The notes under the pieces were generated by a model. It worked only from the letters and a program-made list of their open reading frames with translations. It was not told where the DNA came from and made no database searches. Positions 18,605-40,433 of a stretch of 40,433 bases of DNA are shown here, in pieces; positions within the stretch are counted from its first letter, which is position 1, and each line of letters starts with the position of its first letter. Position numbers and translations under genes: made by a program. Source of the stretch: Calothrix sp. HK-06 (lineage in GTDB: Bacteria > Cyanobacteriota > Cyanobacteriia > Cyanobacteriales > Nostocaceae); NCBI RefSeq assembly GCF_001904745.1, contig NZ_MRCD01000083.1:1-40433 (forward strand). Direction: 5' to 3'.

Positions 18605-18620
18605 TATGTTAAGCAGTGAG

Positions 18621-19723: not shown

Positions 19724-19729
19724 CAAAAT

Positions 19730-19862
19730 TGTAGGTTCGCACAGAAGTTGCAAATTCTGGAACGTAATTACGTCGTTTCAGCCACTAATTGTCGCGCGCT
19801 CGTGCAATTTTTTTGCATAGCCGTGCAAATTTCCAGAAAAATTCGCGCTCTTACTGCAAAAA
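19730..19862 (+). repeat. Left end of the Tn7-like transposon with TnsB-type sites
   Basis: The terminal repeat covers 19730-19756. Related sites follow at about 19791-19810, 19815-19831 and 19843-19862, each with a CGCR-type start and a TGCAAATT- or TGCAATTT-like end. The sites point inwards, as TnsB sites do. Confidence 0.75.
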
Positions 19863-20888: not shown

Positions 20889-20917
20889 AACAATAAAATA
20901 ATTTAATTTAATTTAAT

Positions 20918-24329: not shown

Positions 24330-24396
24330 AAATACCTCACTGTAAGTTGCAGTACTTTACGAAATATTTCTGATTAAAGAATTAACGCTCTTTTTT

Positions 24397-25047
24397 TTAG
24401 TTAGATGAAAAATTTCCTAATTTTTGTGTCATTTGAATCAAGCTACTCGAACAAATAGGTTTCATTAAGTCTGTTTGTAAAAAACCTGAGTATAAGAGCC
24501 TGAAAATAACTTGCCGATTAATACCTTGAGGTTTTAGAATTTGTTCTGCTTGTAAAATAGTGATTGGCTCTGATTTCTGAAGATAATTTTTACAAGTTAT
24601 TAAATCCTGTAAAGAATATTGAACTCTTGAATATTTGTGGAGAATTTTAATATTGCTTAACCTTGGCTCCACCCGAATCATTTCATCTGTAACTACAAGA
24701 AATTCCCAACCTGCGAGCGCGCATATGGGAGTTACTTTCCGGAATAAAGTCTGGTATTTCTCTGATTGAGCCTTTTGCGCTGGTTTAACTTCTATTACCT
24801 GCTTTTTAGTTCTGCGCTCAACGAAAAAATCAGGGGTGTACTTCTTGGGCTTACCATCAAGGTAGTAATTAAGCTTCCAGGGTTGACCAACGTAGTTAAC
24901 TACATCTGGATCAATCTCTAGGAAGTATATGTAATCTCTCTCAAGGTGCGACTCATATGGAACAATGCTACCTGTCTTATGGCTGGCAAATTTCCCAATA
25001 TTTTTCTTTGTACCAGTATTGGTAATCTTTCTGGCAGGGTTAGCCAT
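24397..25047 (-). CDS. tnsA: TnsA endonuclease
   Basis: This 216-residue protein shows the TnsA restriction-like fold. Glu sits in VPYESHLERDYIYFLEID (about 32-36), Asp73 in KKYTPDFFVE, and EVK at 86-88 (QVIEVKP). These are the E...D...E-x-K residues that cut the 5' ends of the transposon, allowing cut-and-paste rather than replicative movement. The C-terminal domain (about 130-216) would contact TnsC. The start is an ATG preceded by a perfect AGGAGG-type site (ttaggagggaaag). It is the first gene of the transposition operon, just inside the right end. No residue loss is evident. Confidence 0.92.
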   Translation of the reverse strand: MANPARKITNTGTKKNIGKFASHKTGSIVPYESHLERDYIYFLEIDPDVVNYVGQPWKLNYYLDGKPKKYTPDFFVERRTKKQVIEVKPAQKAQSEKYQTLFRKVTPICALAGWEFLVVTDEMIRVEPRLSNIKILHKYSRVQYSLQDLITCKNYLQKSEPITILQAEQILKPQGINRQVIFRLLYSGFLQTDLMKPICSSSLIQMTQKLGNFSSN

Positions 25048-25098
25048 CTTTCCCTCCTAAAATAAAAAAGGGGTAATTTAAATCTAGCGCTAATTCCA

Positions 25099-25192
25099 GA
25101 AATTTGCACGACAGAGCAAAAAAAAATTGCACGACCGTGCGAAAAATTTGCAGCTTCTGCGCGACAATTTGCAGCTTCTATGCGAACCGACA
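25099..25192 (-). repeat. Right end of the Tn7-like transposon with TnsB-type sites
   Basis: Reading inwards on the minus strand, the terminal repeat (25192-25166) is followed by sites at about 25165-25145, 25140-25121 and 25117-25099. Each ends in TGCAAATT or TGCAATTT. The tnsA promoter must lie in or next to this region, so TnsB binding could repress the operon. Confidence 0.75.
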
Positions 25193-25195
25193 AAA

Positions 25196-25215
25196 TAAAC
25201 GATACGTATCGTTTA
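25196..25215. repeat. Perfect 20-bp palindrome abutting the transposon end
   Basis: TAAACGATACGTATCGTTTA is a perfect palindrome that starts 4 bases outside the transposon terminus. It could be an operator of the interrupted neighbour or part of the feature the transposon recognised as a target. Confidence 0.7.
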
Positions 25216-25381
25216 ACTATTATAGAATCATTGTGTCAGTGTTGTATTAGGCCGGATAATGATTGTTATCTGGAATATATACTTAAACAATATTTAACTA
25301 AGTGCTTTATGCCGTTGAGAGACATACCTGAGCCAAAGTTAATAACGCTGGATGGGGGGAAGATTGCCCCTCTAGGCATAT

Positions 25382-25423
25382 AGTTAGGTCGAGGGGGAGT
25401 ACTATCTCCCCCTCGACCTAACT
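25382..25423. terminator. Long perfect hairpin, possible terminator
   Basis: An 18-bp arm (25382-25399, containing gtcgagggggag) pairs perfectly with 25406-25423 across the 6-base loop tactat. It starts inside the stop codon of the small frame ending at 25383. No T-run follows on either side, so it may be a factor-dependent terminator, an mRNA-stabilising hairpin or a dispersed hairpin element. Confidence 0.6.
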
Positions 25424-25575
25424 CAATGCCACTAGCGCCCCAAGCAATACTTCAATTACAGGAGCGGCTTACTCAAAGCGCGCAACAGCGGCAATCATAC
25501 ACCCAAATCGAAAGATAGTATTTTCAATATTAGAGTGGCGCTTGAGAGACAGACCAATATAGTATAAATTTATTC

Positions 25576-28218: not shown

Positions 28219-29142
28219 TTCAGAAGCAGTGATGGCAATTATATCAACACTATATAGGTCTTTAATTCCAAATTGGTGCCCTAAATTACTTACTCAAAAT
28301 CTTTAATAACTTAAATTTTAATTCAGTTAGACGTTAAGGATACATTTCAATAAAATACATTAAACTTTAATTATTTTTTTGGCTTAGTAATTATTAATAG
28401 TTGTAAATTAGATTTTTACGGGTGTTTGCTGTTATCAGTAGACAAAGTGTGAAATGCTATTAATTAAAGCGCATACTTAATACTTGCTATGGTGCGGCTT
28501 CGCCGCGCTACCTGTTCTCGACGATCCCTGTCGGTCGGTCGCAAACAGGTTTTTAAAAAAAGCAACCCACTTAAAAATATTCAGCTATTGTAGTAGTCGT
28601 AATCTTCTCGGAATCCATCTATTACACTCCAGCAGTACGCGGAGTCTTTTTTTGTGCTTCTGTTACTTCTACTTCAAATACTTTTCTCACGACTGCTATG
28701 TGCCATTGATAAACGGAAGCGCTATAAGTTGTGTAAGTCATCCAGGAATTGAGGGGAAGACTATAATCTTTAGGCATACGAAGTTTAAAGTAATGATTGA
28801 TACCTTATTTTAGCCGTGTCATCAGTACCCAAAATTAATATATGTTAAAAGTCTTGTTTCAGTATAATAAGTCAATATTAATACTTTAAAAACACTACAC
28901 GGATAAGCTAGGCAGTTGCGGCGCCCAACATTACCTACTCCAAACACCACTCATATCAGCAAGTTTCCTTTTATGTTAAGCAACACACCTAATTTTTTCT
29001 TAATTTACCATTACAAAACTACCCAAGGCGCCCTAAGTAGAGGCAAACAAACCTACTATATTAAGGTTGCAGATATTTTTTAGCTGAAACAATTTTATAG
29101 TCATCCGTGTACAATTCCAAATATATTCACGCACAAAAAACG
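28219..29142. other. Long intergenic stretch with two hairpin elements
   Basis: No supported gene lies in these 920 bases. A perfect hairpin GCGGC-TTC-GCCGC is at 28494-28506. It is followed by the cctgtt...aacagg pair at 28511-28549 and a T-run, forming a compact GC-richer block in AT-rich DNA that looks like a cyanobacterial dispersed hairpin element. GGCGCC occurs at 28920 and 29027. The frame of about 110 codons covering the hairpins has no protein-like character. Confidence 0.5.
28511..28554 (+). terminator. Terminator-like hairpin with T-run
   Basis: CCTGTT (28511-28516) pairs with AACAGG (28544-28549) and is followed by five T. The loop is long (27 bases) but contains further self-complementary gtcggtcgg-type sequence. 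No plus-strand gene ends here, so it may belong to a dispersed hairpin element. Confidence 0.35.
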
Positions 29143-30141
29143 ATGTCGCGATTTAGAGTAGTCCCTGACCCTGTAATTATCCAAATCAACCACCTGGCGC
29201 CAGTACCCATTAATAAAGTTAAGGATTTAAGGGAGTTAAGGATTGACGAATTTCTAACAGCTCGTAACCTGGCGCCGAAGTCTGAGAAAGCGTACCGCCA
29301 AGATTTGAAATATTTCCTTGAGTGGTGTGATACTTCGTGGGTCGAGGTTGAGCCAAGGCAAATCGCAAACTTTAAATTATATTTACAGCGAGGGTCTGAG
29401 AATAAGCGCGCGTTGAAAGAAGCTAGTGTGCGACGGGTGCTTGGAACCCTAAAAAATTTTTATAACTGGATGTTCCGGTCAGGATATGTTAAAAGTGACC
29501 CAACGCTGGCTGTTGATTTACCAAAGCTGAAAGAGCCGGGAGCCAATAATCTTAACGAGAAAATTGTTGCTGATATTTTTGGTGCCGCAGAACAAACTGG
29601 TTTTCCTGAACGTAACATCGCGATAGTAGGTGTGTTACTGCACGGATTACGAGCAAGCGAGGTTTGTAATTTGAATTTCGGTGATTACGACGGCGAGTGT
29701 TTGGAAGTACGAGTGGCGAAATCAGGCTCAGTGGGAACAGTGCCACTGGAACAATGGTGCTTGGATTTAATTGAAAATTATTTGAACTGGCACCGGGGAA
29801 TGCCCGGTTATAAAAAAGAAAGCGAGAAACCTTCTTGCCCGTTGTTCACTTCTTGTTCATATCGCAACAAGGGAGAAAGGATTACTTACGATACTATAAA
29901 TAAACTTTGCCACCAACTAAAAAAAGAGACTGGGCATAATTTTCATGCTCATCAATTCCGCCATACCTTCGGCACTAATTTGATATTGGCTGGGATAAAT
30001 CCTTACCACGCTATGACGCTAATGCGGCATAAATCAGTATCTAATTTTCGTCGCTATACCAAAGCTGCGGACAGTAAAGCAGCAATTAAAGAATTTCACG
30101 GGGTATCTAAAAAGGGAAGTATACTTCGTCCGGAGTTATGA
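29143..30141 (+). CDS. Tyrosine site-specific recombinase (XerC/D-like)
   Basis: This protein of about 332 residues has a core-binding domain (DEFLTARNLAPKSEKAYRQD, RRVLGTLKNFYNWMF) and a catalytic domain. Box I Arg is in VLLHGLRASEVCNL, Lys in VRVAKSGSVGTV, HxxR in HAHQFRHTFGTNL, the second His in LMRHKSVSNF, and Tyr in RRYTKAAD. All catalytic residues are present. The frame extends to a GTG at 29107 (12 residues longer); I prefer ATG 29143, but neither start has a good ribosome site. GGCGCC occurs twice early in the gene, which suggests long residence in this genome. It stands alone; its target site is not apparent. Confidence 0.9.
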   Translation: MSRFRVVPDPVIIQINHLAPVPINKVKDLRELRIDEFLTARNLAPKSEKAYRQDLKYFLEWCDTSWVEVEPRQIANFKLYLQRGSENKRALKEASVRRVLGTLKNFYNWMFRSGYVKSDPTLAVDLPKLKEPGANNLNEKIVADIFGAAEQTGFPERNIAIVGVLLHGLRASEVCNLNFGDYDGECLEVRVAKSGSVGTVPLEQWCLDLIENYLNWHRGMPGYKKESEKPSCPLFTSCSYRNKGERITYDTINKLCHQLKKETGHNFHAHQFRHTFGTNLILAGINPYHAMTLMRHKSVSNFRRYTKAADSKAAIKEFHGVSKKGSILRPEL

Positions 30142-30504
30142 AATTACCACCAACGGCGCCAATGCACTTTTAAGAATCGAAACGAATTGTATTGCTACAC
30201 AAAATATGAGATTAAACATCTTCTAATCGATGGCAAACCTTAAACAATGGTGAGAGCGCACAGGTAGTATTTGTATTTGTATCAATTGTGTTACTGAGAA
30301 ATCAGGCACCTCATCTTATAGTTCAAATCAACAATATTCCTCGCTTGGAGAACGCGACTCAATGAAGTAATATTACTGTTGGTTTGAGTGGTGCCGTTTA
30401 TTTTTCTAAAGTCTACTACCGAGGGACTTTATACGTTGGTTTAAACTATTATGTAATTGGAAGGCGCCTATAAGCGGCAACACCATCATAAGGAAGCACG
30501 CTTA
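30142..30504. other. Intergenic stretch, GGCGCC sites only
   Basis: These 363 bases contain GGCGCC at 30155 and 30463, a few near-variants (GGCACC, GGTGCC) and no supported gene. A TTG-initiated extension of the methyltransferase gene reaches to 30457 but lacks a ribosome site. The promoter of the methyltransferase gene is expected here. Confidence 0.4.
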
Positions 30505-31281
30505 ATGATAAATAAGAAACGTAGCGATTCGTTTAATGAAGTAGCTGAAATATACGATACTGCGCGTCCAGGTTATCCACCTGAATTAATAGAAGACGTA
30601 ATAAGAATAGCTAACATAAAGGATTCAGCAACAATTTTAGATGTCGGCGCCGGAACTGGAAAAGGAACACTACCATTTGCCGAAAAAGGTTACACTATTC
30701 ACTGTGTCGAGCCAGGTGAGAAACTTGTTGCAGTGGCAAGTCATAACTTACGTTCGTATCCCAAAGTTACATTTGATATAACAACATTTGAGGAGTGGGG
30801 TTTAAAAGCAGGCGCCTATGATTTATTAATATCCGCTCAGGCTTTCCATTGGGTTAACCGGGATATTGCGTATATTAAAGCAGCACAAGCTTTGAAAGAA
30901 AGTGGTTATATTGCGTTGTTCTGGAATTTTTCTCCGATGCCGGATACACCAGTGTTCAATGCACTTAATGAAGCGTTTAAAAAATATGTACCATCAATGG
31001 TATATAATCCTCCCTCAATACCTTCACTTGTAGAGAAACGAGAAAAATGGATAGTTGATAGTAAATGTTTTAAAAATTTAATAATCAAGGAATACCCTTG
31101 GGCTATTAATTATAAAACAGAGAAATACTTAAATCTTCTAAAAACTCAAACTACTTATCAAGCATTTAGTGAAGAAGAGAAAAAAAGTTTATCTAGTATT
31201 GTAGCAGAAATATTAAATGCTAATCGTGGCTACGTAACTAAACCTTATTTATCGGTTTTGTTCCTTGCCCAGAAGATTTAA
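30505..31281 (+). CDS. SAM-dependent methyltransferase, class I
   Basis: This 258-residue protein starts at ATG 30505 (MINKKRSDSFNEVAEIYD), chosen because GGAAG lies 8 bases upstream; a TTG 48 bases earlier is less likely. The Rossmann motif I is ILDVGAGTGKGTLPFAEKG, motif II CVEPGEKLV, and a later ISAQAFHWVN is typical of small-molecule methyltransferases of the UbiE/TAM-like group. The C-terminal half is helical. The substrate cannot be deduced. It stands between non-coding DNA and a small coiled-coil gene about 80 bases downstream, possibly in one transcript. GGCGCC occurs twice inside the gene, at motif I and at 30811. Confidence 0.85.
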   Translation: MINKKRSDSFNEVAEIYDTARPGYPPELIEDVIRIANIKDSATILDVGAGTGKGTLPFAEKGYTIHCVEPGEKLVAVASHNLRSYPKVTFDITTFEEWGLKAGAYDLLISAQAFHWVNRDIAYIKAAQALKESGYIALFWNFSPMPDTPVFNALNEAFKKYVPSMVYNPPSIPSLVEKREKWIVDSKCFKNLIIKEYPWAINYKTEKYLNLLKTQTTYQAFSEEEKKSLSSIVAEILNANRGYVTKPYLSVLFLAQKI

Positions 31282-31361
31282 AGTTACTTCTTTTTTAATA
31301 CTGATATAAAACAGGCGCCATTTTCTGGTAAACTGCGCTTGCCCAAAAAACGGAATATTCG

Positions 31362-31784
31362 ATGACAAACTTCAAACAAACACCCAATTGGCAACCAATC
31401 AGTATGTTGCCTGTTATCGCTCATCTGATTGACGATGGTATAATTGATACCCAGCAACAGCTATCTACCTTAATAGAAGCTGAGGGTAAACCATATGCTT
31501 TGGATGATTACACGGTAGAAAGGGTAGTAAAAGTATATACAGAGCAGAAAGAATTCTTAAATCTTTACACAGAACAATTAAAGAAATGGAAGCTTTCATC
31601 ACCCTCGGTTAGCCAAAATCAGGAAATTGAGAGATTGGAGAAACAGCTTATTAAATTTCGTGAATTGAATACAAAGATTTTAGGTTTAGTTGACGAACTT
31701 AAAGAACAGACTATTGAAAAATTGTTCGCCAAGTCTGATGAAGAAATTGGGCTAGAAGCATTATTGGGTAAACTAAAATACTAA
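31362..31784 (+). CDS. Small coiled-coil hypothetical protein
   Basis: The first half of this 140-residue protein (MTNFKQTPNWQPISMLPVIA, HLIDDGIIDTQQQLSTLIEA) looks like a helical domain. The second half is a probable coiled coil (QNQEIERLEKQLIKFRELN, DELKEQTIEKLFAKSDEEIG). It starts at ATG 31362 and follows the methyltransferase gene by 80 bases. I see no catalytic motif or membrane segment. I do not recognise the family. A perfect palindrome 20 bases downstream may act in termination. Confidence 0.6.
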   Translation: MTNFKQTPNWQPISMLPVIAHLIDDGIIDTQQQLSTLIEAEGKPYALDDYTVERVVKVYTEQKEFLNLYTEQLKKWKLSSPSVSQNQEIERLEKQLIKFRELNTKILGLVDELKEQTIEKLFAKSDEEIGLEALLGKLKY

Positions 31785-31804
31785 CGCTAACGATTTTTAC
31801 ATTT

Positions 31805-31818
31805 ATGAGGCGCCTCAT
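31805..31818. repeat. 14-bp palindrome ATGAGGCGCCTCAT
   Basis: A perfect palindrome built around GGCGCC lies between two convergent genes. A second GGCGCC follows at 31848. It is one of the longest symmetrical extensions of the hexamer seen in the window. Confidence 0.7.
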
Positions 31819-31865
31819 TGTTGGTTCAATTCAAACGTTGAGAGACAGGCGCCGAAACACTACAA

Positions 31866-32216
31866 TTATTTCACGAGTTCGAGCAAACCGGACATATCTA
31901 ATACTTTTTCGCTCCAAGTCGCACTCATTTCGGTAACTTTCAAAAGTTCGGCTTCATTACTGGTGATGGTTAACCAATTTTGGCGCGCTTGAAGTAGTTG
32001 TCTTTGAAGTTCGCTTAATTCTGGGATGGAACTTTCTTTTTGTAGTAGAGATACATAGAGTATGCTTTCGTCGAGGACAACTGATGCTACCTCACGGTTT
32101 GCTTCGCCAGCAAGTGCCCATGATTTGAAGCGTGATAAAGACGATGCAAGCTCGCCTAGTTGTCGTTGACGACTGATACGTAAAAATGATTTTTCGATGG
32201 AAGTCCAATCCGGCAT
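31866..32216 (-). CDS. Hypothetical protein, partner of the DUF5674 gene
   Basis: This 116-residue protein starts at ATG 32216 and overlaps the stop of the DUF5674 gene by one base, so the two are translationally coupled. It is helical and acidic-polar: MPDWTSIEKSFLRISRQR, REVASVVLDESILYVSLLQ, and a C-terminus EKVLDMSGLLELVK. A decayed paralogue ending VLDMSGLLDSVA lies at 35560-35806, next to a remnant of a second DUF5674 gene, so the pair has travelled or been duplicated as a unit. Co-duplication suggests a functional pair, perhaps toxin-antitoxin-like. That is an inference from organisation only. Confidence 0.7.
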   Translation of the reverse strand: MPDWTSIEKSFLRISRQRQLGELASSLSRFKSWALAGEANREVASVVLDESILYVSLLQKESSIPELSELQRQLLQARQNWLTITSNEAELLKVTEMSATWSEKVLDMSGLLELVK

Positions 32217-32551
32217 TACATTTCTCCCAGTAACCTAGTTGTAATTTGGGTTATTCTCTCTCTTAGCTCTGGAGATTGTATTATCATTGTACGATTATTT
32301 TGACTTGGGCGTATGTTAATTATTGATTCAAAATCTATTGTTTGCGTATATGGGTTCCAATCTGCCCCCCACAAATCACGTTGCCTACTTCCCGAAGCTA
32401 GTAACACTTCTTCACATTGATAATGTTTTTCGCTACCTCCTGCTAATATTTCACGTTCTACATCAACAACAATTTTAATAAACACACCCCAAATCTTCAA
32501 CATTTCCTCTAATTCCTCACGAGTTGCACGTGTACGAATAATTAAAATCAT
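32216..32551 (-). CDS. DUF5674 family protein
   Basis: The sequence of this 111-residue protein fits DUF5674: an N-terminal MILIIRTRATREELEEML, a central VVDVEREILAGGSEKHYQCE then EVLLASGSRQRDLWGADW, and the conserved INIRPSQNNRTM close to the C-terminus (ITTRLLGEM). I know of no established biochemical role. It is the first gene of a coupled pair, its stop overlapping the partner's start. A truncated copy of its C-terminus lies at 35899-35997. No membrane segment is present, so it is cytoplasmic. Confidence 0.82.
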   Translation of the reverse strand: MILIIRTRATREELEEMLKIWGVFIKIVVDVEREILAGGSEKHYQCEEVLLASGSRQRDLWGADWNPYTQTIDFESIINIRPSQNNRTMIIQSPELRERITQITTRLLGEM

Positions 32552-32747
32552 TACTTTTCCTTCGTTGTACTGAATTAATTATATTAGTTAATGCACTCTG
32601 ATTAAAATATTTAATGTGATAAAATAATCATTAATTTTGATTTAAAAATATGTTTATTGAAGTTATGTACTAACTCTAAAGTATTTGTGTTCTTGCCTCA
32701 ATACTACGCCACCTGCTAATATATTATATATTAGCCAAACTCGTTAA

Positions 32748-33326
32748 ATGTTAGATAATGTAAATCAACCTGGTGAATACGACGTAGTTCTTGGAAACAA
32801 AGAGGTCAATACATTCGGCGCCGTACTGGGAGGAATACAAGGAGTAAAGCACCGATTAACTTCTGAAGTTGTTGAACATCGAATAGCGGCTTTGGATGAA
32901 GCGTTTAAATATGAACATGAAGGATTAAATTGTATCATAAAAGCTTTGAATGACCCAGATAAGTTAGTGAGAATTCATGCATATGAACTTTTGGAGAAAA
33001 TAGAGGCATTAGAAATTAATATAATATTAGATACATTTCGTCAAAAATATTACCTTGTTCATTTTGATGGTGTTTATCAAAGGGAGAAATATAATGGTTG
33101 CTACGGTTATATTCGATTTTATGTTGATGGAACAGTTATCACCGTAGGCTCTACAGGCAGTCCTGAACAAATATCAAATTGGTTTAACAAAGAATCTGAA
33201 AATCAATATTTAGGTAGAGGCACTTATATAGTTGACGATAATACAATTAAATTTTCATCAAATTCTGCTTGTGGAGTAATCGATTATTTGGGAGAAATTG
33301 ATGTAGATAAGAAAGCAATTTTTTAA
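32748..33326 (+). CDS. HEAT-like repeat protein with a C-terminal beta-domain
   Basis: The N-terminal 85 residues of this 192-residue protein match a frequent Nostocales pattern: PGEYDVVLGN, FGAVLGGIQGVKHRL, VVEHRIAALDEAFKYEHEGL, then IIKALNDPDKLVRIHAYELL, a PBS-lyase/HEAT-like helix pair. In other cyanobacterial proteins this module heads larger fusions. The rest (about 95-192) looks beta-rich (YGYIRFYVDGTVITVGSTG, GRGTYIVDDNTIKFSS). It ends abruptly after KKAIF at a run of six T, so loss of a C-terminal part by frameshift is possible. A +1 frame remains open for about 60 more codons. Binding function is inferred. Confidence 0.72.
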   Translation: MLDNVNQPGEYDVVLGNKEVNTFGAVLGGIQGVKHRLTSEVVEHRIAALDEAFKYEHEGLNCIIKALNDPDKLVRIHAYELLEKIEALEINIILDTFRQKYYLVHFDGVYQREKYNGCYGYIRFYVDGTVITVGSTGSPEQISNWFNKESENQYLGRGTYIVDDNTIKFSSNSACGVIDYLGEIDVDKKAIF

Positions 33327-33526
33327 GCCAGTCGCAGAAATCTATTATTACAAAACTAAAAGTAAACCAATAATTTTCTTGTGGTTGCCCACACCCTCGT
33401 CTTGTCGTAGTCAGAAGCAGTTAATGGGGAGAATAAGGTTATGGCTTGATGAAAATATTGTTACTAATACTGGTCACGTAACTGAAGGCATGGGGAAAAT
33501 GCTTAGAAACGTCAGAATGGCAAAGT

Positions 33527-33685
33527 ATGGCGCCTGAAAAAAGACCAGGTAATTATTATCACAATAAATATACACCATTCGATGCTGGTATCTATAATAA
33601 CCTTTGGCAGAAAAATAACTGGGATGCTGTTCCCTTGGAGTTGTTAGTTAATTTAGCCCTTGAAAAATGGCTTACAAGAATATAA
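33527..33685 (+). pseudogene. Small ORF, probable gene remnant (52 codons)
   Basis: From ATG 33527 the frame reads MAPEKRPGNYYHNKYTPFDA, then GIYNNLWQKNNWDAV and ends EKWLTRI. It stays open upstream to a stop at 33479 (KAWGKCLETSEWQS), so it looks like the 3' part of a gene without its beginning. The aromatic-rich, protein-like composition argues against chance. I do not recognise the family, and it may also be a real small protein. Confidence 0.4.
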
Positions 33686-33734
33686 GCCTGTTTATGGCAA
33701 CTTTGTATGCATAACGAATGATAAGCGGTAGATT

Positions 33735-33960
33735 ATTTGGTGAGTGAGCCAGCGGTGATCTGCGTTGCCACGTCTCGGTTTCCGGAGCCAGCGTCGTGGG
33801 CGGGTTTCCCGACTTGAGACGACTGGCGTTGCGTGGTGAGGCAGTTGGCGGGTGTGGTTTCCCGACCGTCAAACTGCCGAACCCGAAGGGCAAATGCCGC
33901 GTTCCCGGAGGGTGTCAGTTTCCGTCCTGTTGGACTCACGAACCTTTATGGCGCCTTCAT
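33735..33960. repeat. GC-rich non-coding island with internal repeats
   Basis: About 225 bases are strikingly GC-rich inside AT-rich DNA. Repeated elements are gagccagcg (twice), ggtttcccgac (twice), and related ttcccggag/gtttccggag motifs. I recall comparable blocks of gagccag...tttcccgacttgag as dispersed intergenic repeats in filamentous cyanobacteria. Overlapping reading frames on both strands here lack protein character. I infer a dispersed repeat element that may form an RNA structure. Confidence 0.6.
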
Positions 33961-34215
33961 ACATATAGCCACAACGTAACGGTTCATTATTTAAGCAGTT
34001 GTGGGTGCCCGATAATTACACTCATGCTGTATATGTATATAGTTTGTGTTGTTCATATTAGTATTAATTTTTACTTAATAATAGAGGCATCCGCCGTATA
34101 TACTACTAGATTTGTATGTGAGTCCGGCGTATAATAAGCGTACTTAATAAATTGCTTCTTGGTATTGTGCAACCTTGAAGGCGCCAATTTTAAATACAAT
34201 TTGGATAAAACAAGC

Positions 34216-34749
34216 ATGAAATCAACATTTTTAAACGCAGCTTTTACATGTAATATAGTCGTTGGTAGTTTTTTAATTAGCAGTTTAACGCAAGCACAAA
34301 CATCAATTATACATGAATTAAAGCTTGCTTCAACACAAAATACTTCTCAAATTGTAGAAGATAACGATATTAAATTCCAACTACAAGGATGTCAAAGGGG
34401 GTTCAAAATCGTAAACTGCTCTATACTAATTACAAATTTATCTGATAAAAATGAAATTTTACATGCTGGAAATTCTTATAGCAGAGAGAACTCTCGTGTT
34501 TTTGACTCTTCAGGGAAGGAGTATGTATCGAAGCAAATACAACTAGATAATAGAAAGGATAGGATGTTCGCCCGAATTAATATAATTAAGGACGTACCAA
34601 TCAAGGCGATATTGAGTTTTGAAATTCCCCCAAATATCCAGAGCGCTAGTACAATTGAGTTAAGTTACTGGGTAAATCGAAGACTCAAAAAGCACAAGGT
34701 AAATTTTCGTAACATTAACTTTACTAGTTCCAGTTCAAGCGGTGAGTAA
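34216..34749 (+). CDS. Secreted or periplasmic hypothetical protein
   Basis: This 177-residue protein starts at ATG 34216, chosen because it opens directly into a signal peptide (MKSTFLNAAFTCNIVVGSFL, then ISSLTQAQ with a likely cut after AQA). A 19-residue upstream extension would bury the signal. The mature part is beta-rich: VEDNDIKFQLQGCQRGFKIV, NCSILITNLSDKNEIL, VFDSSGKEYVSKQIQLDN, then AILSFEIPPNIQSASTIEL. It resembles immunoglobulin-like DUF4352-type domains of cyanobacterial envelope proteins. Two cysteines (GCQ, NCS) may form a disulphide. It ends in a serine run. The function is unknown. Confidence 0.7.
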   Translation: MKSTFLNAAFTCNIVVGSFLISSLTQAQTSIIHELKLASTQNTSQIVEDNDIKFQLQGCQRGFKIVNCSILITNLSDKNEILHAGNSYSRENSRVFDSSGKEYVSKQIQLDNRKDRMFARINIIKDVPIKAILSFEIPPNIQSASTIELSYWVNRRLKKHKVNFRNINFTSSSSSGE

Positions 34750-34959
34750 TATATAACTTGGTATTCAGGCGCCATATATGTAAATGTCTAAACACTTGAA
34801 CATCTAAATATTGATAGCAGGCACCTGTTCCTCTTGACGTTCAATACGTAGTTTTCTTTTTCAATAAAAATAGTACCCTGTTGTGTACCAAGCAAAGTAG
34901 GTAATCCTGTGTCGGCACCGTGATGCATTAGTTAGTAACATTCATACAGAAAAAATATT

Positions 34960-35463
34960 ATGACATCGTTTAACGCAGCCGCTCAACTTCAAAAACCTAT
35001 TCTCAAAGAGGGTTCAAAAGGTGAAACAGTTAAGGAATTACAAAGACTTTTACTAAAATATAAAGTTTATATTGGTACTCCAGATGCCTGCTCTCCTGTA
35101 GGCCAAGAAGTAGTTGATGGTATCTTCGGCGCCAGAACCACAGCGGCAGTCAAAACGTTTCAAGAGCGGATGTTCTTATTACAAGATGGTATCGTTGGTG
35201 ATAGAACTTGGCGTTCATTGTTCAAAGGCGCCCCCGTGGATATGCCCACCCTCAAAAAAGGTAGCAAAGGAGATTTGGTTAAGCGCATTCAAGAAAGAAT
35301 GACAGTTGCAGGCTACGAAGTTGGTAGAATTGATAGCGAGTTTGGCAACAGTCTGGAAAAAGCTGTAAGACAATTACAGAAAAACACTGGCTTGCCTGTT
35401 GATGGTGTAATTGGCGACCGCACTTGGTTCGAGTTAAGCAAGCTGAATACAAACTTCTGCTAA
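34960..35463 (+). CDS. Peptidoglycan-binding domain protein (two repeats)
   Basis: This 167-residue protein has two PG_binding_1 domains: PILKEGSKGETVKELQRLL with DGIFGARTTAAVKTFQ and DGIVGDRTWRSL, and then PTLKKGSKGDLVKRIQERM with IDSEFGNSLEKAVRQLQ and DGVIGDRTWFEL. No signal peptide, amidase or other catalytic domain is attached, so it is a stand-alone binding module or an accessory to a cell-wall enzyme. It starts at ATG 34960 and is followed by a good terminator at 35496. GGCGCC lies twice within it. Confidence 0.9.
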   Translation: MTSFNAAAQLQKPILKEGSKGETVKELQRLLLKYKVYIGTPDACSPVGQEVVDGIFGARTTAAVKTFQERMFLLQDGIVGDRTWRSLFKGAPVDMPTLKKGSKGDLVKRIQERMTVAGYEVGRIDSEFGNSLEKAVRQLQKNTGLPVDGVIGDRTWFELSKLNTNFC

Positions 35464-35495
35464 ATGATTACTTGTAATATAATGTAGTATGATTA

Positions 35496-35539
35496 TTAGG
35501 GTGCATTTGTCGTCACAGATGCACCCTAATTGATTTTTT
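35496..35539 (+). terminator. Intrinsic terminator after the peptidoglycan-binding gene
   Basis: TTAGGGTGCAT (35496-35506) pairs perfectly with ATGCACCCTAA (35519-35529). The loop can add a TGT/ACA pairing. A T6 run follows at 35534-35539. It lies 33 bases past the stop and is a textbook rho-independent terminator. Confidence 0.85.
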
Positions 35540-35559
35540 GCAGGCGCCGTTAATTGTAA

Positions 35560-35806
35560 TCACGCTACAGAATCAAGTAAACCTGACATATCTAATACTA
35601 AGAGCGAGTAAGATTCCGCAAGTTTTGCTACCTCGACTCGACGAAGTTCATCTAACAGAATATTATCTAAATTTATTCGCCAGCGCGCGAGTTGAACTTG
35701 GATGTTAACTAGTTCTTCGGCTTGTTCTGGTTCAATTTCTGCTGCTATCCACGATTGGGAACCACTCCGTCTCGTCAATTACTACTTCTACACCCTTTTT
35801 GAACGC
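35560..35806 (-). pseudogene. Decayed paralogue of the DUF5674 partner protein
   Basis: The open part (72 codons from a TTG at 35778) ends LLVLDMSGLLDSVA, close to the C-terminus of the intact partner at 31866 (KVLDMSGLLELVK). Upstream, the homologous stretch continues in another frame as KKGVEVVIDETEW, matching REVASVVLDESIL of the intact copy. A frameshift near 35750-35775 therefore splits the gene, and no proper start remains. It lies beside a DUF5674 remnant, as the intact pair does. Confidence 0.7.
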
Positions 35807-35898
35807 ACTATTACAAAACGAACGAACGCGCGCACTTGTTTGAAGCTATATGCCTTAAGCGATGGGGAATATCAACGCTAAGAAAGCTTACTTTTTTT

Positions 35899-35997
35899 TC
35901 ATCTAAAGTCGATTTGGTATCCACCGATTAACTCCTCTGTAATTCGTTTTACACGCTCTTTTATAGTAGAGTATGGAATTATCATAGAGCGATTATT
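35899..35997 (-). pseudogene. C-terminal remnant of a second DUF5674 gene
   Basis: Thirty-two codons read NNRSMIIPYSTIKERVKRIT, then EELIGGYQIDFR and a stop, aligning with NNRTMIIQSPELRERITQIT of the intact DUF5674 protein. The N-terminal two thirds are missing; the EAD1-protein gene occupies the space, its stop overlapping by a few bases. The remnant shows that the DUF5674 pair was once duplicated here. Confidence 0.7.
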
Positions 35998-36787
35998 TAT
36001 GATTGAAAAATATTATTTCTAATCTACCAGTAATGCTCCCAACTTCCTCAACTAAACCTCGTAGATAGTTAAGATAATCCTCCGCTATCATAGCAACTTC
36101 CTCATCTGTAAATCCAGATTTTTCTTCATTCAAAGCATAAGCAACGAAATGCTTATCACGTTTATACGTTTCATATTTTTCAGGGTCTTCGGCTTTATAC
36201 CTATAATAAGAGTAAAATGATTTATGAAATTTTTGTAGACTTTCAATAAGTTTGTTGATAGCATCTTGAAGTTTAGGGTTTTCTTCTGTTTCAAGAATAG
36301 CTTCTAAAATAGCTTTCCATGTACCAAAATTTCCTCGTTCTCTTTGACCATGAAAGAGAAAGTCAACTTTGCTCCAAACTTCCTCACGCTTTGATTGATT
36401 TTGAAGAAAGGGACTTATTAGCTGCTGATTTTCTATAAGAGATAAATTAACACAATCAAAAATCTCTTTCGCTGTATTCACGATGTTATGGTTTTTTGAA
36501 TTGTTTACCCGATTTTCTATTTTATTAAGTTTTTGAGCAATCGCTTGCAATTTATCGTTTTTTGGATTTGACTCACACGCACCAGAAATTAAACTTTCAA
36601 TCCATCCTTCAGCTGATGCTTTTTTAATTAACTCGAAGACAATATCTGCTAAGTTACTGTTACCAACAATTGCATCTAACTTTTTCTCTAACTCAAATAA
36701 TAACATTTCCTCTAATGATGATTTGGTGGGAAAGGCATTTAATAAGGCATCACGTAGTTGTTTGCAATCCTGTCCAGATAAATTCAT
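35993..36787 (-). CDS. EAD1-domain protein with an uncharacterised C-terminal region
   Basis: Residues 1-85 of this 264-residue protein match effector-associated domain 1: MNLSGQDCKQLRDALLNAFP, SLEEMLLFELEKKLDAI, NLADIVFELIKKASAEGW. In cyanobacteria and actinobacteria EAD1 works as a death-domain-like adaptor that pairs effectors with STAND or protease proteins carrying the same domain. The remaining 180 residues are helical and unknown (VWSKVDFLFHGQRERGNFG, KFHKSFYSYYRYKAEDPEKY). They may be the effector or sensor. No second EAD1 protein is visible in this window, so its partner lies elsewhere. The gene replaces the N-terminal part of a decayed DUF5674 copy. Confidence 0.78.
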   Translation of the reverse strand: MNLSGQDCKQLRDALLNAFPTKSSLEEMLLFELEKKLDAIVGNSNLADIVFELIKKASAEGWIESLISGACESNPKNDKLQAIAQKLNKIENRVNNSKNHNIVNTAKEIFDCVNLSLIENQQLISPFLQNQSKREEVWSKVDFLFHGQRERGNFGTWKAILEAILETEENPKLQDAINKLIESLQKFHKSFYSYYRYKAEDPEKYETYKRDKHFVAYALNEEKSGFTDEEVAMIAEDYLNYLRGLVEEVGSITGRLEIIFFNHK

Positions 36788-36982
36788 AATTACAAGTGTT
36801 TGTCAATGCGTTTTTCAAGTAGAAGATACTTCTTATTATTTTACGTATTTTTATCGTTGACATCAGGATAATAAAACAATTACGATTTACAGCCCTTCCG
36901 CGTAGCATTCCTTAGTTACACAAATGATTACTCTGTATGGTTTCAAGATACGGCGCCCGTGGTCATTTATACTTCTTCCGTC

Positions 36983-37029
36983 TTGGCGCCTTTCAATAAG
37001 AAAACCCTCAACGATTAATTCGAGGCGCC
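36983..37029 (+). repeat. 47-bp dispersed repeat, copy 1
   Basis: The unit runs from ttggcgcc through caataagaaaaccctcaacg and gattaattcga to ggcgcc. It is bounded by GGCGCC on both sides. Copy 2 is at 39161-39207 with the same length and a few changes. Confidence 0.75.
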
Positions 37030-37116
37030 TCTATAATCAAGCAGAATAAATTTTGCCAGATACGGTGATGTAGAGAACGCACTTACTATTCTCACGATTT
37101 ATTCATCTAGGTTCCA

Positions 37117-37135
37117 GTTTTTAGAGCAAGACTTA
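37117..37135 (+). repeat. 19-bp exact repeat, copy 2
   Basis: This is identical to 11590-11608 (gtttttagagcaagactta) and in the same orientation. The flanking sequences differ. Confidence 0.6.
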
Positions 37136-37170
37136 TTGGCGTTAACGGATTATTTATTTGCCTAAACTCG

Positions 37171-37347
37171 ATGAACAAAAAGTATAGAATGCATAAGAAT
37201 ACGCAGGAAACAAACCCTGGACAATCAGTGTTAACTTACAAAAATACTACTAATTCACTCATCGAGCTTTTGGAATTGCTGGAAAAAATACACTCAGGCA
37301 TTAGTAAAAAAATATCTAAACGAATGGGTATGCCGAGTTTAATATAG
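37171..37347 (+). CDS. Possible small gene, 58 residues
   Basis: From ATG 37171 to TAG 37345 the frame reads MNKKYRMHKNTQETNPGQSV, then a helix SLIELLELLEKIHSGISKKI and a basic end KRMGMPSLI. The amphipathic helix and basic charge are protein-like, but there is no strong ribosome site. It lies just upstream of a frameshifted gene. I do not recognise it. Confidence 0.4.
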   Translation: MNKKYRMHKNTQETNPGQSVLTYKNTTNSLIELLELLEKIHSGISKKISKRMGMPSLI

Positions 37348-37408
37348 TACAATAAATACGTAATTACGGCGCCGATATTCACGATATATTTAATTCAGTA
37401 AGCAATAA

Positions 37409-37772
37409 GTTTTAATTATATTATTATGGGTAAATCTAATAAAAACAATAGTTGTTGGTATCAATGTCTTAAACTGGACTTTGTGGTACGCACAATATAA
37501 AATCATTCTCGGTGCCGAAGTCAAGGTTTTGGAAGACTGGCGGTATGATGTGTGGGGTAAAGATATAAACAATGCACCCACTTATATCCAACAGTAGATT
37601 ATATTTACGCGCGCTTACAGAAAGTATTGAGGATGTTACAGCGCCACTCGTGTCAAACCTTACTACTCTCCGTAAGATAATTTCACTCCATGAATCAGCA
37701 ATAAGGGATGGGGCAAAGCTTTCCTCAACCATGTTGCCCCTGGTGACAGCCTCGCTAGTCACAGAAAACTAG
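37409..37772 (+). pseudogene. Frameshifted gene remnant
   Basis: Two protein-like frames abut. The first (to TAG 37595, no start codon) contains IVVGINVLNWTLWYAQYKII, LGAEVKVLEDWRYDVWG and DINNAPTYIQQ. The second (open from 37572) continues SRLYLRALTESIEDVTAPLV, SNLTTLRKIISLHES and LPLVTASLVTEN. Joining them near 37590 gives a smooth protein of about 120 residues. The start is missing, so I read it as a broken gene. I suspect a conserved cyanobacterial protein but cannot name it. GGCGCC at 37368 lies just upstream. Confidence 0.6.
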
Positions 37773-38000
37773 TGTAAAATAGAACAAAGCAGTAATTTCT
37801 ATACTTAGCGATTAAATAGTCCTCATCCTACACAAAAGGAATCGGCGCCTACCAGCTTCGACAAGTATTCGATGGCTACGTGAACTCAGAGCTATACGGT
37901 ACAATGCTGATAGGTGGTAAATAATTGTATGAAAAGGGCGCCAATACCCAGAAAAATGATACTATTGTTCTTAAATAAATATTAATTGGGAGGGTCTGTC

Positions 38001-38936
38001 GTGACCTTTATAAATCCTAAAACAGATTTTGCTTTTAAGAAAATCTTTGGTTCTCAGCAAAGTAAAGATATTCTAATTGGTTTTTTGAATGCAATTTTGT
38101 ATCAAGAGAAACCTGTGATTTTAGATTTAGAAATCATTGACCCTTATCAGGCGCCACGCATCAAAGGTATCAAAGATTCATACTTAGACGTAAAAGCTAC
38201 CATCACAGAAAATAAAACCGTTATCATCGAGATGCAGGTTTTAAATGTGTTGGGTTTCGAGAAGCGGGTGCTATATAATGCAGCTAAAACTTTTTCAATT
38301 CAGCTTCGAGTTGGTGAAGATTACGCACGATTGAATCCAGTGATAGCCTTGACTATTACCGATTTTGACATGTTTGAAGGCAGTAGTAGAGTAATATCTC
38401 GCTACCGATTAAAAGAAAAAGACGATTTAACCGATTATAGCGATGATATCGAACTCGTATTCGTCGAGTTACCCAAATTTGACAAACAACTAGGGGAATT
38501 ACAAACGTTATTAGATAAATGGCTGTATTTTCTCAAAGCAGCAAATACGCTCAACTCTGTTCCACCCACTATGGAAGAAGTACCAGAAATAAATCATGCG
38601 TTTGAAGTTGCAAGGGAGAGTACATTGACCCCAGAGGAGCTAGATTTGCTAGAAAAACGAGAAATGTTTATTCACGATAGCAAAAATGCAATTTTAAAAG
38701 CGCAACAGGATGCCGAAGCTAAGGGTCGAACAGAAGGTAGAGCAAAAGGTAGAGAAGAAGGTAAAGTAGAGGGTAGGGCAGAAGGTAGAGAAGAAGGTAG
38801 GGTAGAAGGTAGAGAAGAAGGAGCAAAAGAAAAAGCACTTTCTATCGCGCGTTCGCTACTTGGTGTTTTAGATGCACAAACGATTAGCCGAACTACGGGG
38901 TTAAGTGTGGAAGAGGTTGAACAATTACAAAAATAA
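38001..38936 (+). CDS. Rpn family PD-(D/E)xK nuclease (recombination-promoting nuclease/putative transposase)
   Basis: This 311-residue protein starts at GTG 38001, chosen because GGGAGG lies 7 bases upstream; a TTG at 37986 overlaps that site. The family signature is clear: FINPKTDFAFKKIFG, the strand SYLDVKATI and then KTVIIEMQVLN (the D...E-x-Q core), and a leucine-rich helix region. The C-terminus has a charged (R/K)GREEG repeat segment, followed by SIARSLLGVLDAQTISRTTG and LSVEEVEQLQK. Rpn proteins cut DNA and stimulate recombination; they were long called transposases but lack DDE chemistry. The gene is alone and apparently intact. Confidence 0.88.
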   Translation: MTFINPKTDFAFKKIFGSQQSKDILIGFLNAILYQEKPVILDLEIIDPYQAPRIKGIKDSYLDVKATITENKTVIIEMQVLNVLGFEKRVLYNAAKTFSIQLRVGEDYARLNPVIALTITDFDMFEGSSRVISRYRLKEKDDLTDYSDDIELVFVELPKFDKQLGELQTLLDKWLYFLKAANTLNSVPPTMEEVPEINHAFEVARESTLTPEELDLLEKREMFIHDSKNAILKAQQDAEAKGRTEGRAKGREEGKVEGRAEGREEGRVEGREEGAKEKALSIARSLLGVLDAQTISRTTGLSVEEVEQLQK

Positions 38937-39321
38937 ACATTGTAAAGAACAATTAAGAAACTAACAAGGAGAACTGTAACATCTCCCACGTTGGCAATGC
39001 TGACAGGCGCCAGTCCTTGATGTGATAAATTAATCATGTGGAGTAATTTACGTGCAGGCGCCAATACAAATTAAACTTCCCCAGCAGCCACCTTTTTAAA
39101 CCGAATTTACTAATCTAATTACTCAAAATTATAATAATTAACATTAGCATCAATAAAGCGTTGGCGTCACTCAATAAGAAAACCTCAAACGATTAATTCA
39201 AGGCACCGAAATATATTTAAATAAACGTAGTGTCAATGGAGTAATGCTGGAAAATTATGGCGTCGATGCAATATTTAACAATCACAACGAAAGGTGCCAA
39301 TTTAAATTGTTTTGTTATTGG
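38937..39321. other. Intergenic stretch with repeat copy 2
   Basis: These 385 bases contain GGCGCC at 39005 and 39057, degenerate forms (GGCGTC, GGCACC) and copy 2 of the 47-bp repeat. A minus-strand frame (HQGLAPVSIANVGDVTVLL) looks like translated repeat DNA rather than a gene. Nothing else is supported. Confidence 0.4.
39161..39207 (+). repeat. 47-bp dispersed repeat, copy 2
   Basis: Same length and order as 36983-37029, but the boundary hexamers are GGCGTC and GGCACC instead of GGCGCC. The inner part caataagaaaacctcaaacg with gattaattca differs at only a few positions. Confidence 0.75.
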
Positions 39322-39840
39322 TTACAGTAAGACTTCTTGCGTAAAGTTGAATTCAGAGACAATTCGCGTGCGTATCAAGCTGGCGCCTGCCGCCGCAATT
39401 TCTTCTCTATCTGAGTCAGTCAGAAGTTCTTTGAGTAAAGATTTTAGTACTTGCCTATCAGATATAAATTCTTCGGTGTATAAATCATCCTGTGATAAAA
39501 CAGCTTTGATGTGAGGAATAGCTGTATCTGTCGGCGCCAATAATCTATTTTTAATACAAGCTCTCGCAACCCGTGATATTTGCTTGGTGCCGTCACCTAA
39601 GTTCAAGACTTCAATATTTAATCGTGCTTCGCGGTTCAGGGATATACGCAAAGTGGTCAGGCGCCCAAGCAAAGGTAAGTCTGATAATAGTTTACCTATT
39701 AGTGGAGTCCAATCCAAGCCGGCGCCGATATTTCCCCCTACCTCATCTTCGGCTGCAATCGCTTGCTGCATATACTCAGGGTCGAGCATTAAATCAAGGG
39801 GATTAGAAACATCGTGGATTTGTTCTTTTAAGTTGTTCAT
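39322..39840 (-). CDS. Hypothetical protein coupled to the GNAT gene
   Basis: This 172-residue protein starts at ATG 39840 (MNNLKEQIHDVSNPLDLMLD). The frame extends to 39882, but AAGGAGG sits directly before 39840 and the upstream gene stops one base earlier, so 39840 is preferred. The sequence is soluble and mixed alpha/beta (LLGRLTTLRISLNREARLNI, QVLKSLLKELLTDSDREEI). It has no motif that I recognise. Tight coupling to an acetyltransferase suggests that they act together, possibly as a regulator or antitoxin of the enzyme; that is inferred. Several GGCGCC sites lie in it. Confidence 0.65.
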   Translation of the reverse strand: MNNLKEQIHDVSNPLDLMLDPEYMQQAIAAEDEVGGNIGAGLDWTPLIGKLLSDLPLLGRLTTLRISLNREARLNIEVLNLGDGTKQISRVARACIKNRLLAPTDTAIPHIKAVLSQDDLYTEEFISDRQVLKSLLKELLTDSDREEIAAAGASLIRTRIVSEFNFTQEVLL

Positions 39841-39841
39841 T

Positions 39842-40402
39842 TTAACCTCCTTGTAAACGTCGGCGCCAAACAGGGTACTCAAAGTATACTAGCTCATCAT
39901 AATCTTCATCGGGTTCCAAGTCGTACATTCCCCGGTTGTCATAAAACTTTTCAGAACCTGGGAGAGCATGTAACCCAACTCTCCCTTCGTAACCAAGTTC
40001 TAAGCTTCTTTCTCTGGTAAATAATAGTAAATTAGTTCCAACGCCTCGAAGTTTTGGAGGATTTTGAATATCTTTCCTGTTTAATGGCGCCGTAGCGATG
40101 TAGTAAATATAAACTAAACGCTTTCCACGTGTAATTTGTGAACCGTGCATGGTTGTTTCGATAACCAGCAAGCCTTCAGTTTGGTTTTCACACTCAACCG
40201 CATAGCCTTCGTAATTATCGTACCTAGAAACCATTCTAAGTTTTACCATTAAATCCCATAATTTGTCTTCCTGTTTGTACTGTGTAAGCAACGCAACCCA
40301 TTGATTTTCAAAATCTTCAACATGCTTAGTAGTTAAATTGACAATCGTTGCCTCTACAGTTGAGTTGTCGATACTCCTATTTAAATAAATATTTTTTCGC
40401 AT
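39842..40402 (-). CDS. GNAT-family N-acetyltransferase
   Basis: The central part of this 186-residue protein fits GNAT: a strand RLVYIYYIATAPLNR, the acetyl-CoA loop around LRGVGTNLLLFTRERSLELG, then a strand RVGLHALPGSEKFYDNRGMY, where the last block (EKFYDNRGM) is the usual C-terminal GNAT signature, and a strand LVYFEYP. It starts at ATG 40402 with AGGGG upstream. Its last codons encode the ribosome-binding site of the next gene, so translation is coupled. The substrate is unknown: protein, antibiotic or tRNA (as in GNAT toxins) are all possible. It is the last gene in the window. Confidence 0.8.
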   Translation of the reverse strand: MRKNIYLNRSIDNSTVEATIVNLTTKHVEDFENQWVALLTQYKQEDKLWDLMVKLRMVSRYDNYEGYAVECENQTEGLLVIETTMHGSQITRGKRLVYIYYIATAPLNRKDIQNPPKLRGVGTNLLLFTRERSLELGYEGRVGLHALPGSEKFYDNRGMYDLEPDEDYDELVYFEYPVWRRRLQGG

Positions 40403-40433
40403 TTACTACCCCTGATTTTCGTTATTTATATTA

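What the first reader, a model, noticed from the sequence alone, without database searches (positions are those of the whole stretch)
28900..40433. GGCGCC as a HIP1-like genome signature, absent from the transposon
I counted about 30 copies of GGCGCC from 30.1 to 40.4 kb and 8 in 25.2-30 kb, against about 0.4 per 10 kb expected at this GC content. Only about 7 occur in the first 20 kb and none in 19730-25192. I did not see the classical HIP1 octamer GCGATCGC. Sites lie in genes and between genes and often have palindromic flanks. The density appears to report time of residence and splits the window into a resident right part and a foreign left part.
Basis: partly seen in the sequence, partly recalled or inferred. 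Interest (0 to 1): 0.75.

Follow-up and report, generated by a model that had tools for sequence, protein, structure and literature searches.

The report
GGCGCC: genus-wide Calothrix genome signature
A six-letter DNA word is repeated about once every 600 to 900 bases across the genomes of one cyanobacterial genus; copies that lose a middle letter to a change typical of DNA damage seem to be put back quickly, which makes the old question of what keeps such repeats in place testable.

Summary
Confirmed: the window holds 48 GGCGCC, 39 of them right of 25.2 kb, none in 19730-25192. The whole genome has 15,449, 18-20 times a first-order expectation in samples. This is the alternate HIP that Elhai (2015) reported for Calothrix PCC 7103, so the signature is known. 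New here: 7 of 7 species of the genus carry it, 0 of 210 others of the family do; HIP1 is scarce in the same seven. All seven have a HindV-type cytosine-5 methyltransferase and no detected HindVP endonuclease. Aligned species show sites flickering to GGTGCC/GGCACC and back: fitted reversion 26 (bootstrap 17-41) against 0.5 for other CpG words; the other eight one-off neighbours show no such pull. No Vsr gene was found in the genus. Much of the right part and the first 2.9 kb match Calothrix plasmids; 2.9-25.1 kb is an island with 7 sites in 22 kb. Palindromic flanks are not in excess. Methylation itself is unmeasured, and the present abundance is not explained by fitted gain rates.

The parts
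25193..40433 (.). GGCGCC-rich stretch: 39 sites, 2.56 per kb
30448..33323 (.). plasmid backbone, 91% identical to Calothrix PCC 7716 plasmid AP025019 and 82-90% (in pieces) to Calothrix NIES-4105 plasmid AP018291; most site differences are GGTGCC/GGCACC
33324..35531 (.). plasmid backbone, 90% identical to AP018291; sites 33529, 33950, 34180, 34768, 35128 conserved; 35227 is GGTGCC there; 34914 is GGCACC here and GGCGCC there
39112..40433 (.). plasmid backbone, 95% identical to AP025019; six sites (39382-40086) conserved; 39163 and 39259 are GGCGTC here and GGCGCC there
29107..30141 (+). tyrosine integrase; 29065-30154 is 88% identical to AP025019, on the plasmid side of the island
55..2902 (.). 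left plasmid backbone, in pieces 83-89% identical to AP025019; sites 1773 and 2292 are GGCACC there; 2037 and 2563 are GGTGCC/GGCACC here and GGCGCC there
2903..25138 (.). island with no colinear counterpart in the AP025019 stretch fetched (its integrase is 72% like another integrase there): 7 sites in 22.2 kb (0.31/kb)
3169..4170 (+). tyrosine integrase at the left edge of the island
12141..15131 (+). type IIG-like (Eco57I) restriction-methylase
15245..18604 (+). PLD (HKD) + SNF2 helicase protein, defence-type
20295..25047 (-). Tn7-like transposition genes TniQ, TnsC/TniB, TnsB, TnsA; 0 GGCGCC in 19730-25192
25576..28218 (-). CHAT-nSTAND1-pentapeptide protein, GGCGCC-bearing (five sites 25684-27475)

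Best explanation
GGCGCC is the alternate highly iterated palindrome (HIP) of the genus Calothrix, present where HIP1 is scarce. Proposed working: a solitary m5C methyltransferase of the HindV (GRCGYC) type methylates the inner cytosine, GG(m5C)GCC. That cytosine deaminates to T, giving GGTGCC/GGCACC. A T:G-directed correction, not of the Vsr family, turns the T form back far faster than ordinary TG-to-CG change, and the outermost bases are also held. Sites therefore flicker between GGCGCC and GGTGCC/GGCACC while their density stays near 1.1-1.7 per kb genome-wide in all seven species, in plasmid as in chromosomal DNA; new mobile DNA is poor in them. Shown here: genus-wide abundance; methyltransferase present and HindVP endonuclease not found; a modest inner-C>T excess; transience of the T form; specificity for the T form. 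Inferred: that HIP1 was replaced in the genus ancestor, the methylated base, the enzyme's exact specificity, and that restoration is repair rather than selection.
For: Abundance: 7 of 7 genus genomes have 7,475-20,380 GGCGCC; the other 210 family genomes at most 1,053; HIP1 31-163 per genome in the genus. Enzyme: P0001 homologue in 7 of 7; in six genus loci it lies beside the same neighbour, and a fragment of it lies beside that gene, mtnW-like, at the end of contig C29 of the window's genome; HindVP endonuclease 0 of 7, against 43 of 210 outside. Family: nearest solved relatives M.HaeIII/M.HhaI; one plasmid homologue at 55% identity annotated HindV methylase. Substitutions: inner C>T, GCG-context matched, codon position 1 7/400 vs 4/1527, 2 2/203 vs 4/1506, 3 38/387 vs 75/1342 (any-change odds ratio 1.75); outermost C 4 changes vs 19.4 expected. 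T form: least shared of 1,669 hexamers, on 24 own positions; single ingroup tips vs G062 alone 50:8, against 171:255 for 135 other CpG hexamers, P = 2e-11. Model: T>S 25.9 vs 0.49, bootstrap 17-41, rank 1 of 115 words; simulations with only background reversion give at most 2.2 at the 95th percentile. Specificity: GGTGCC/GGCACC to GGCGCC 30.8, the other eight one-off classes 0-0.58. Window: of 33 positions with GGCGCC in the window or an aligned plasmid, 14 show a T form in at least one of the three records, 5 another form, 14 are intact (my count).
Against: No methylome: m5C at GGCGCC is not measured. The inner-C>T excess over matched context is modest (odds ratio 1.75; S>T rank 11 of 115). 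No Vsr homologue in 7 of 7, so no corrector is known. 13 non-genus genomes carry the methyltransferase without detected HindVP endonuclease and have only 2-277 GGCGCC, so the enzyme alone is not enough. The fitted model predicts a stationary GGCGCC frequency about 5 times below the observed one (controls about 1.7 times below). C5 shows no significant protection (7 vs 9.6). Other one-off forms at sites also lean to short branches (9:6 vs 278:513, P = 0.057; T against these within GGCGCC P = 0.03), so the T-specificity rests mainly. At wobble positions the short-to-long-branch contrast against GCG context is only moderate (38/387 on five short branches, 13/94 on the G062 branch; GCG 64/311 there). 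The S>other rate is poorly fixed (bootstrap 0-1.15).
Confidence: 0.5

Rival explanations
1. Purifying and positive selection for GGCGCC sites (a functional signal such as repair, recombination or DNA uptake), with no special repair.
For: Outermost base protected (C6 odds ratio 0.19); lowest loss to other words of 115; genus-wide retention. Position-specific selection could also hide conversion from other neighbours, because those mostly lie at positions that never were sites.
Against: Constant selection strong enough for a 50-fold T>S rate would abolish S>T, which is instead about twice the pooled control; other one-off neighbours are not drawn to GGCGCC.
Confidence: 0.2
2. Elhai's GmeC-directed mismatch-repair ratchet: any mutation that creates GG(m)CGCC is favoured until about one site per kb.
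For: The model names GGTGCC to GGmeCGCC as a route, assumes inner-C methylation and predicts about this density (PMC4390886); several methyltransferase copies in some genus members.
Against: GACGCC/GGCGTC and AGCGCC/GGCGCT, which the ratchet should also convert, show no elevated conversion (0.00 and 0.19); power is limited (40 and 69 tips).
Confidence: 0.15
3. The T forms are sequencing or assembly errors at methylated cytosines, so the flicker is an artefact.
For: T forms are tip-biased and about equal per genome (50 in five ingroup genomes, 8 in G062).
Against: Strong codon-position bias (38/387 at wobble vs 9/603 at positions 1 and 2); seen in all five ingroup genomes; simulated tip errors of 3-8% per site with only background reversion give T>S of at most 8.2 at the 95th percentile (10 runs per setting).
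Confidence: 0.08
4. Relic of a past burst: GGCGCC was made in the genus ancestor and is now only decaying; density gradients just reflect age.
For: Fitted gain rates are too low for the present density; the more distant G063 has the lowest density, 1,150/Mb.
Against: Density is alike in own and G062, which differ by about 13%, and the T form does not accumulate.
Confidence: 0.07

Closest known systems
GGCGCC alternate HIP of Calothrix PCC 7103 (Elhai 2015, PMC4390886)
   Same: Same word, HIP1 scarce, density 1000-2000 per Mb, GrCGyC-type methyltransferases present.
   Different: Shown here in 7 of 7 species of the genus (that paper calls such cases sporadic, not in clades), on plasmids, with no HindVP endonuclease and with a measured T-form turnover.
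HIP1, GCGATCGC of most cyanobacteria
   Same: GC-rich palindrome at about one per kb, tied to methyltransferases (Elhai 2015).
   Different: Different word; nearly absent in these genomes. Whether it turns over in the same way could not be tested.
Dcm/Vsr very-short-patch repair of E. coli; ScmA/VsrA of Caulobacter (PMC12907096, passages seen)
   Same: Solitary m5C methyltransferase plus restoration of the deaminated site: works like it.
   Different: No Vsr-family gene found in the genus; the Caulobacter motif is only slightly above random.
HindV/HgiDI restriction-modification (GRCGYC; specificity recalled)
   Same: Methyltransferase family.
   Different: Endonuclease not found in the genus; where both genes occur GGCGCC is scarce (median 5 per genome, n = 37).

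Membership tests
Alternate HIP (class described by Elhai 2015) | GC-rich palindrome far above expectation, about 1000-2000 per Mb | tested here: met
   15,449 in 9.99 Mb = 1,546/Mb; O/E 17.8-19.8 first order in samples
Alternate HIP (class described by Elhai 2015) | HIP1 low or absent | tested here: met
   88 GCGATCGC in the genome, 0 in the window
Alternate HIP (class described by Elhai 2015) | methyltransferase that recognises the word | tested here: inconclusive
   HindV-type homologue in 7 of 7; specificity by homology only
HIP1 | word GCGATCGC | tested here: not met
Very-short-patch (Vsr) repair | Vsr endonuclease gene | tested here: not met
   PF03852: 0 of 7 genus genomes, 1 of 210 others; rings in 5 of 14 control genomes, E. 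coli and Caulobacter among them
Very-short-patch (Vsr) repair | T form of the methylated site preferentially restored | tested here: met
   from substitution patterns only; methylation itself not measured
GRCGYC restriction-modification system | HindVP-type endonuclease with the methyltransferase | tested here: not met
   PF09519: 0 of 7 genus genomes at E 0.001
DNA uptake sequence | preferential uptake of DNA that carries the word | not testable with these tools
   needs transformation assays

The most novel reading that the evidence does not exclude
Calothrix has an unrecognised, Vsr-independent repair activity that recognises T:G (or GGTGCC) at GGCGCC and, with a solitary m5C methyltransferase, keeps 7,000-20,000 sites per genome in a steady deamination-restoration cycle; HIP1 of other cyanobacteria may be held the same way.
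Probability: 0.35. Interest if true: 0.82.

Novelty: new member of a known kind. Interest (0 to 1): 0.6.

Why it matters
What makes and keeps HIP sites is an open question (Elhai's paper treats it so). A genus of closely related species with a different palindrome gives a natural experiment: it shows that an alternate HIP can persist through a clade, points maintenance to the deaminated form of one base, and names one enzyme to delete. For annotation it gives a practical marker: stretches poor in GGCGCC in this genus are candidate recent islands.

Tried and rejected
HIP1 comparison: I wanted the same turnover test for GCGATCGC in Nostoc. A Nostoc DNA search found good relatives but its loci could not be cut. 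Two stretches fetched later, with two loci, gave 21 listed HIP1 positions (three of them without any aligned relative) and a handful of changes, too few to judge. A plasmid search for Trichormus gave one identical record and partial matches covering 26% of the query or less.

Palindromic flanks: no excess, rejected. The first substitution script used conserved columns only and stopped on an error after showing that GGCGCC is lost fast at conserved positions; pattern tables and models replaced it. A first model run timed out. The insertion list mixes true insertions with deletions in single sisters (for example 109-118 kb and 140-143 kb are aligned in other sisters); I rest the claim on 61544-77385 (three empty sites, no aligned sister). 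247232-250249 (two empty sites, 0.66/kb) was not checked further. G063, the most distant genus member, was left out of the alignments.

Vsr as corrector: rejected. The 370-aa methyltransferase (P0002) is also in 7 of 7; its specificity is unknown here, so it stays an open, less likely candidate. Only the PF00145 matches that were cut out or fetched (30 loci and 20 stretches, some twice) were clustered, not all 89.
Full report
1. The window has 48 GGCGCC and no GCGATCGC; 30 lie in 30100-40433, 39 in 25193-40433, 9 in 1-19729 and none in 19730-25192. The genome that holds the window (243 contigs, 9,990,453 bp; the window is contig C226, 40,433 bp long) has 15,449 copies, while the mirror word CCGCGG has 6. 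In 360 kb (19 stretches) of that genome GGCGCC is the top palindromic hexamer at 19.8 times a first-order expectation; CGCGCG follows at 4.9, and several palindromes are almost absent. In a 391-kb set the ratio is 17.8. The claim of frequent palindromic flanks fails: 160 of 605 sites, 168.9 expected; 11 of 48 in the window.

2. It is known in one strain and here is genus-wide. Elhai (PMC4390886; abstract, outline, sections 2.6, 3.3, 3.5, the first part of section 3.4 and passages seen) reported GGCGCC as the alternate HIP of Calothrix PCC 7103, with 19 kb of Calothrix D253 alike, and stated that exceptional HIPs occur sporadically and not in clades. Among 217 genomes of the family, 7 of 7 of the window's genus have 7,475-20,380 copies and the other 210 at most 1,053. 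HIP1 numbers 31-163 in those seven; of the other 210, four have fewer than 1,000 (G182 30, G194 535, G191 574, G184 990). Two genus members carry matches at nearly the coordinates of plasmids of Calothrix NIES-4105 and Calothrix PCC 7716, from which I infer the genus; PCC 7103 may itself be among the seven. A search for GGCGCC with Calothrix in the paper library found Elhai's paper only; the listings showed no other paper on this word in cyanobacteria.

3. The methyltransferase. PF00145 has 89 matches in the seven genomes; of those cut out or fetched, two clusters cover 7 of 7 genomes. The first (P0001, 319 aa) is nearest to M.HaeIII and M.HhaI among solved structures, and a plasmid homologue at 55% identity is annotated HindV methylase (that HindV reads GRCGYC is recalled, while Elhai's text gives GrCGyC for the PCC 7103 enzymes). 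In six genus loci the same neighbour lies beside it; the copy of that neighbour in the window's genome is mtnW-like, below the curated cut-off. In five of the six a second neighbour is shared, GHL10 where scanned. In the window's own genome this copy appears as two fragments at contig ends, with an 83% paralogue on contig C60. HindVP endonuclease was found in 0 of 7 genus genomes and in 43 of 210 others (42 of them over the curated cut-off). Near-full-length homologues of the methyltransferase (at least 58% identity) occur in 50 of the 210: 37 have the endonuclease too and a median of 5 GGCGCC, 13 do not and have 2-277 (middle value 94), and 154 with neither have a median of 37.5 (37 vs 154: P = 3e-7; 6 genomes with the endonuclease alone were left out). 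So the enzyme by itself is not sufficient.

4. How sites change. Own contig C1 and part of C2 were aligned with five of the six sister species (identity 95-87%; G063 left out); the ingroup is nearly a star with G062 as outgroup. In 66,796 columns with all six aligned, 63 sites are intact in all six and 41 are lost in exactly one ingroup species while G062 has them; 31 of those 41 are GGTGCC or GGCACC. Compared with other GCG cytosines, inner-C>T is raised at codon positions 1, 2 and 3 (7/400 vs 4/1527, 2/203 vs 4/1506, 38/387 vs 75/1342), the outermost C is protected (4 changes, 19.4 expected), the next one not significantly (7, 9.6 expected).

5. The T form is short-lived. GGCACC/GGTGCC is the least shared of 1,669 hexamers between own and four close sisters (14.6% on 24 positions; median 79%). 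Single ingroup tips against G062 alone count 50:8 for the T form at GGCGCC sites but 171:255 in 135 other CpG hexamers (P = 2e-11); other one-off forms count 9:6 against 278:513 (P = 0.057), and T against these within GGCGCC gives P = 0.03. A three-state model on 128,721 positions gives S>T 6.1, T>S 25.9, S>other 0.29, T>other 23.7, against 3.0, 0.49, 6.4 and 7.5 in pooled controls; shorter optimisations gave T>S 24-31 and S>other up to 1.0. A block bootstrap (60 replicates) gives T>S 17-41 and S>other 0-1.15. Fitted word by word, GGCGCC is first of 115 for T>S, CGCGCG second (6.75), median of the others 0.49; 21 further words had too few tips; for S>T it is eleventh. Simulations with only background reversion (0.5) and two rate classes give T>S of at most 2.2 at the 95th percentile (15 runs each), and with tip errors of 3-8% per site at most 8.2 (10 runs each). 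Only the T form is drawn back: 30.8, lnL gain 29, while the other eight one-off classes give 0-0.58 (30-95 tips each, so weak conversion cannot be excluded).

6. Reading. Under constant selection the boost of T>S and the damping of S>T are tied; a 50-fold boost with an S>T of twice the control does not fit selection alone, so I infer a mutational or repair component that acts on the deaminated site. This works like Vsr repair, but PF03852 was found in 0 of 7 genus genomes and 1 of 210 others, and in 5 of 14 control genomes. Elhai's ratchet predicts the GGTGCC route but also conversion of GACGCC/GGCGTC, which is not seen. Left open: the fitted stationary frequency is about 5 times below the observed one, against about 1.7 times in controls, so how the sites were made is not explained.

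7. The window. Much of its right part (29065-30154, 30448-35531, 39112-40433) and pieces of its first 2.9 kb match Calothrix plasmids at 82-95% identity. In plasmid AP025019 the left match ends at 338,256 and the match to window 25139-25367 starts at 340,631, so window 2.9-25.1 kb is an island in this comparison. It holds two defence-type genes, a Tn7-like TnsA-TnsB-TnsC-TniQ set and an integrase, and 7 sites in 22.2 kb; the transposition genes have a 72% relative on plasmid AP025020 and the integrase a 72% relative elsewhere on AP025019. At the 33 positions where the window or an aligned plasmid has GGCGCC, 14 show a T form in at least one of the three records, 5 another form, 14 are intact (my count; one intact position, 3938, lies in the 72% integrase match). 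Elsewhere, the 15.8-kb insertion C1:61544-77385, with empty sites in three sisters, has 6 sites (0.38/kb), against 1.83/kb in backbone aligned to at least three sisters. Low density therefore marks recent arrival in the lineage, chromosome or plasmid.

8. Verdict. The signature is of a kind already described in this genus; the clade-wide persistence, the methyltransferase without endonuclease and the T-form turnover are, as far as the searches above show, additions. Interest 0.6.

Noticed in passing
genome sample, 360 kb: CGCGCG is also over-represented (4.9 times) and has the second-highest T-form reversion (6.75); many other palindromic hexamers are nearly absent, and GATC and GGCC are at 0.13 of expectation.
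   Followed up: partly
window 20295-25047: Tn7-like TnsA, TnsB, TnsC, TniQ genes; TnsB is 68% identical to one on Calothrix PCC 7716 plasmid AP025020; cargo and ends not resolved.
   Followed up: no
window 12141-18604: Type IIG-like methylase followed by an HKD+SNF2 helicase protein, a two-gene defence-type pair.
   Followed up: no
window 4922-6025: Predicted pPIWI-associated nuclease domain (pP_pnuc_1; PADLOC Aga_Nuclease).
   Followed up: no
window 25576-28218 and 35993-36787: CHAT-nSTAND1-pentapeptide protein (83% DNA relative on own contig C4) and an EAD1-domain protein.
   Followed up: no
window 37917-38965: PDDEXK_2 transposase-type gene with about 90% copies in chromosomal stretches of own and sister genomes.
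   Followed up: no
G165 (L308): The only Vsr homologue in 217 family genomes.
   Followed up: no
G194, G182, G191, G184: Family genomes outside the genus with low HIP1 (535, 30, 574, 990) and no GGCGCC enrichment; they may carry other alternate HIPs.
   Followed up: no
aligned C1/C2 stretches, five species: Inner-C>T at wobble positions is unevenly spread among species (own 12/91, G061 11/83, G064 8/73, G065 4/56, G060 3/84).
   Followed up: no
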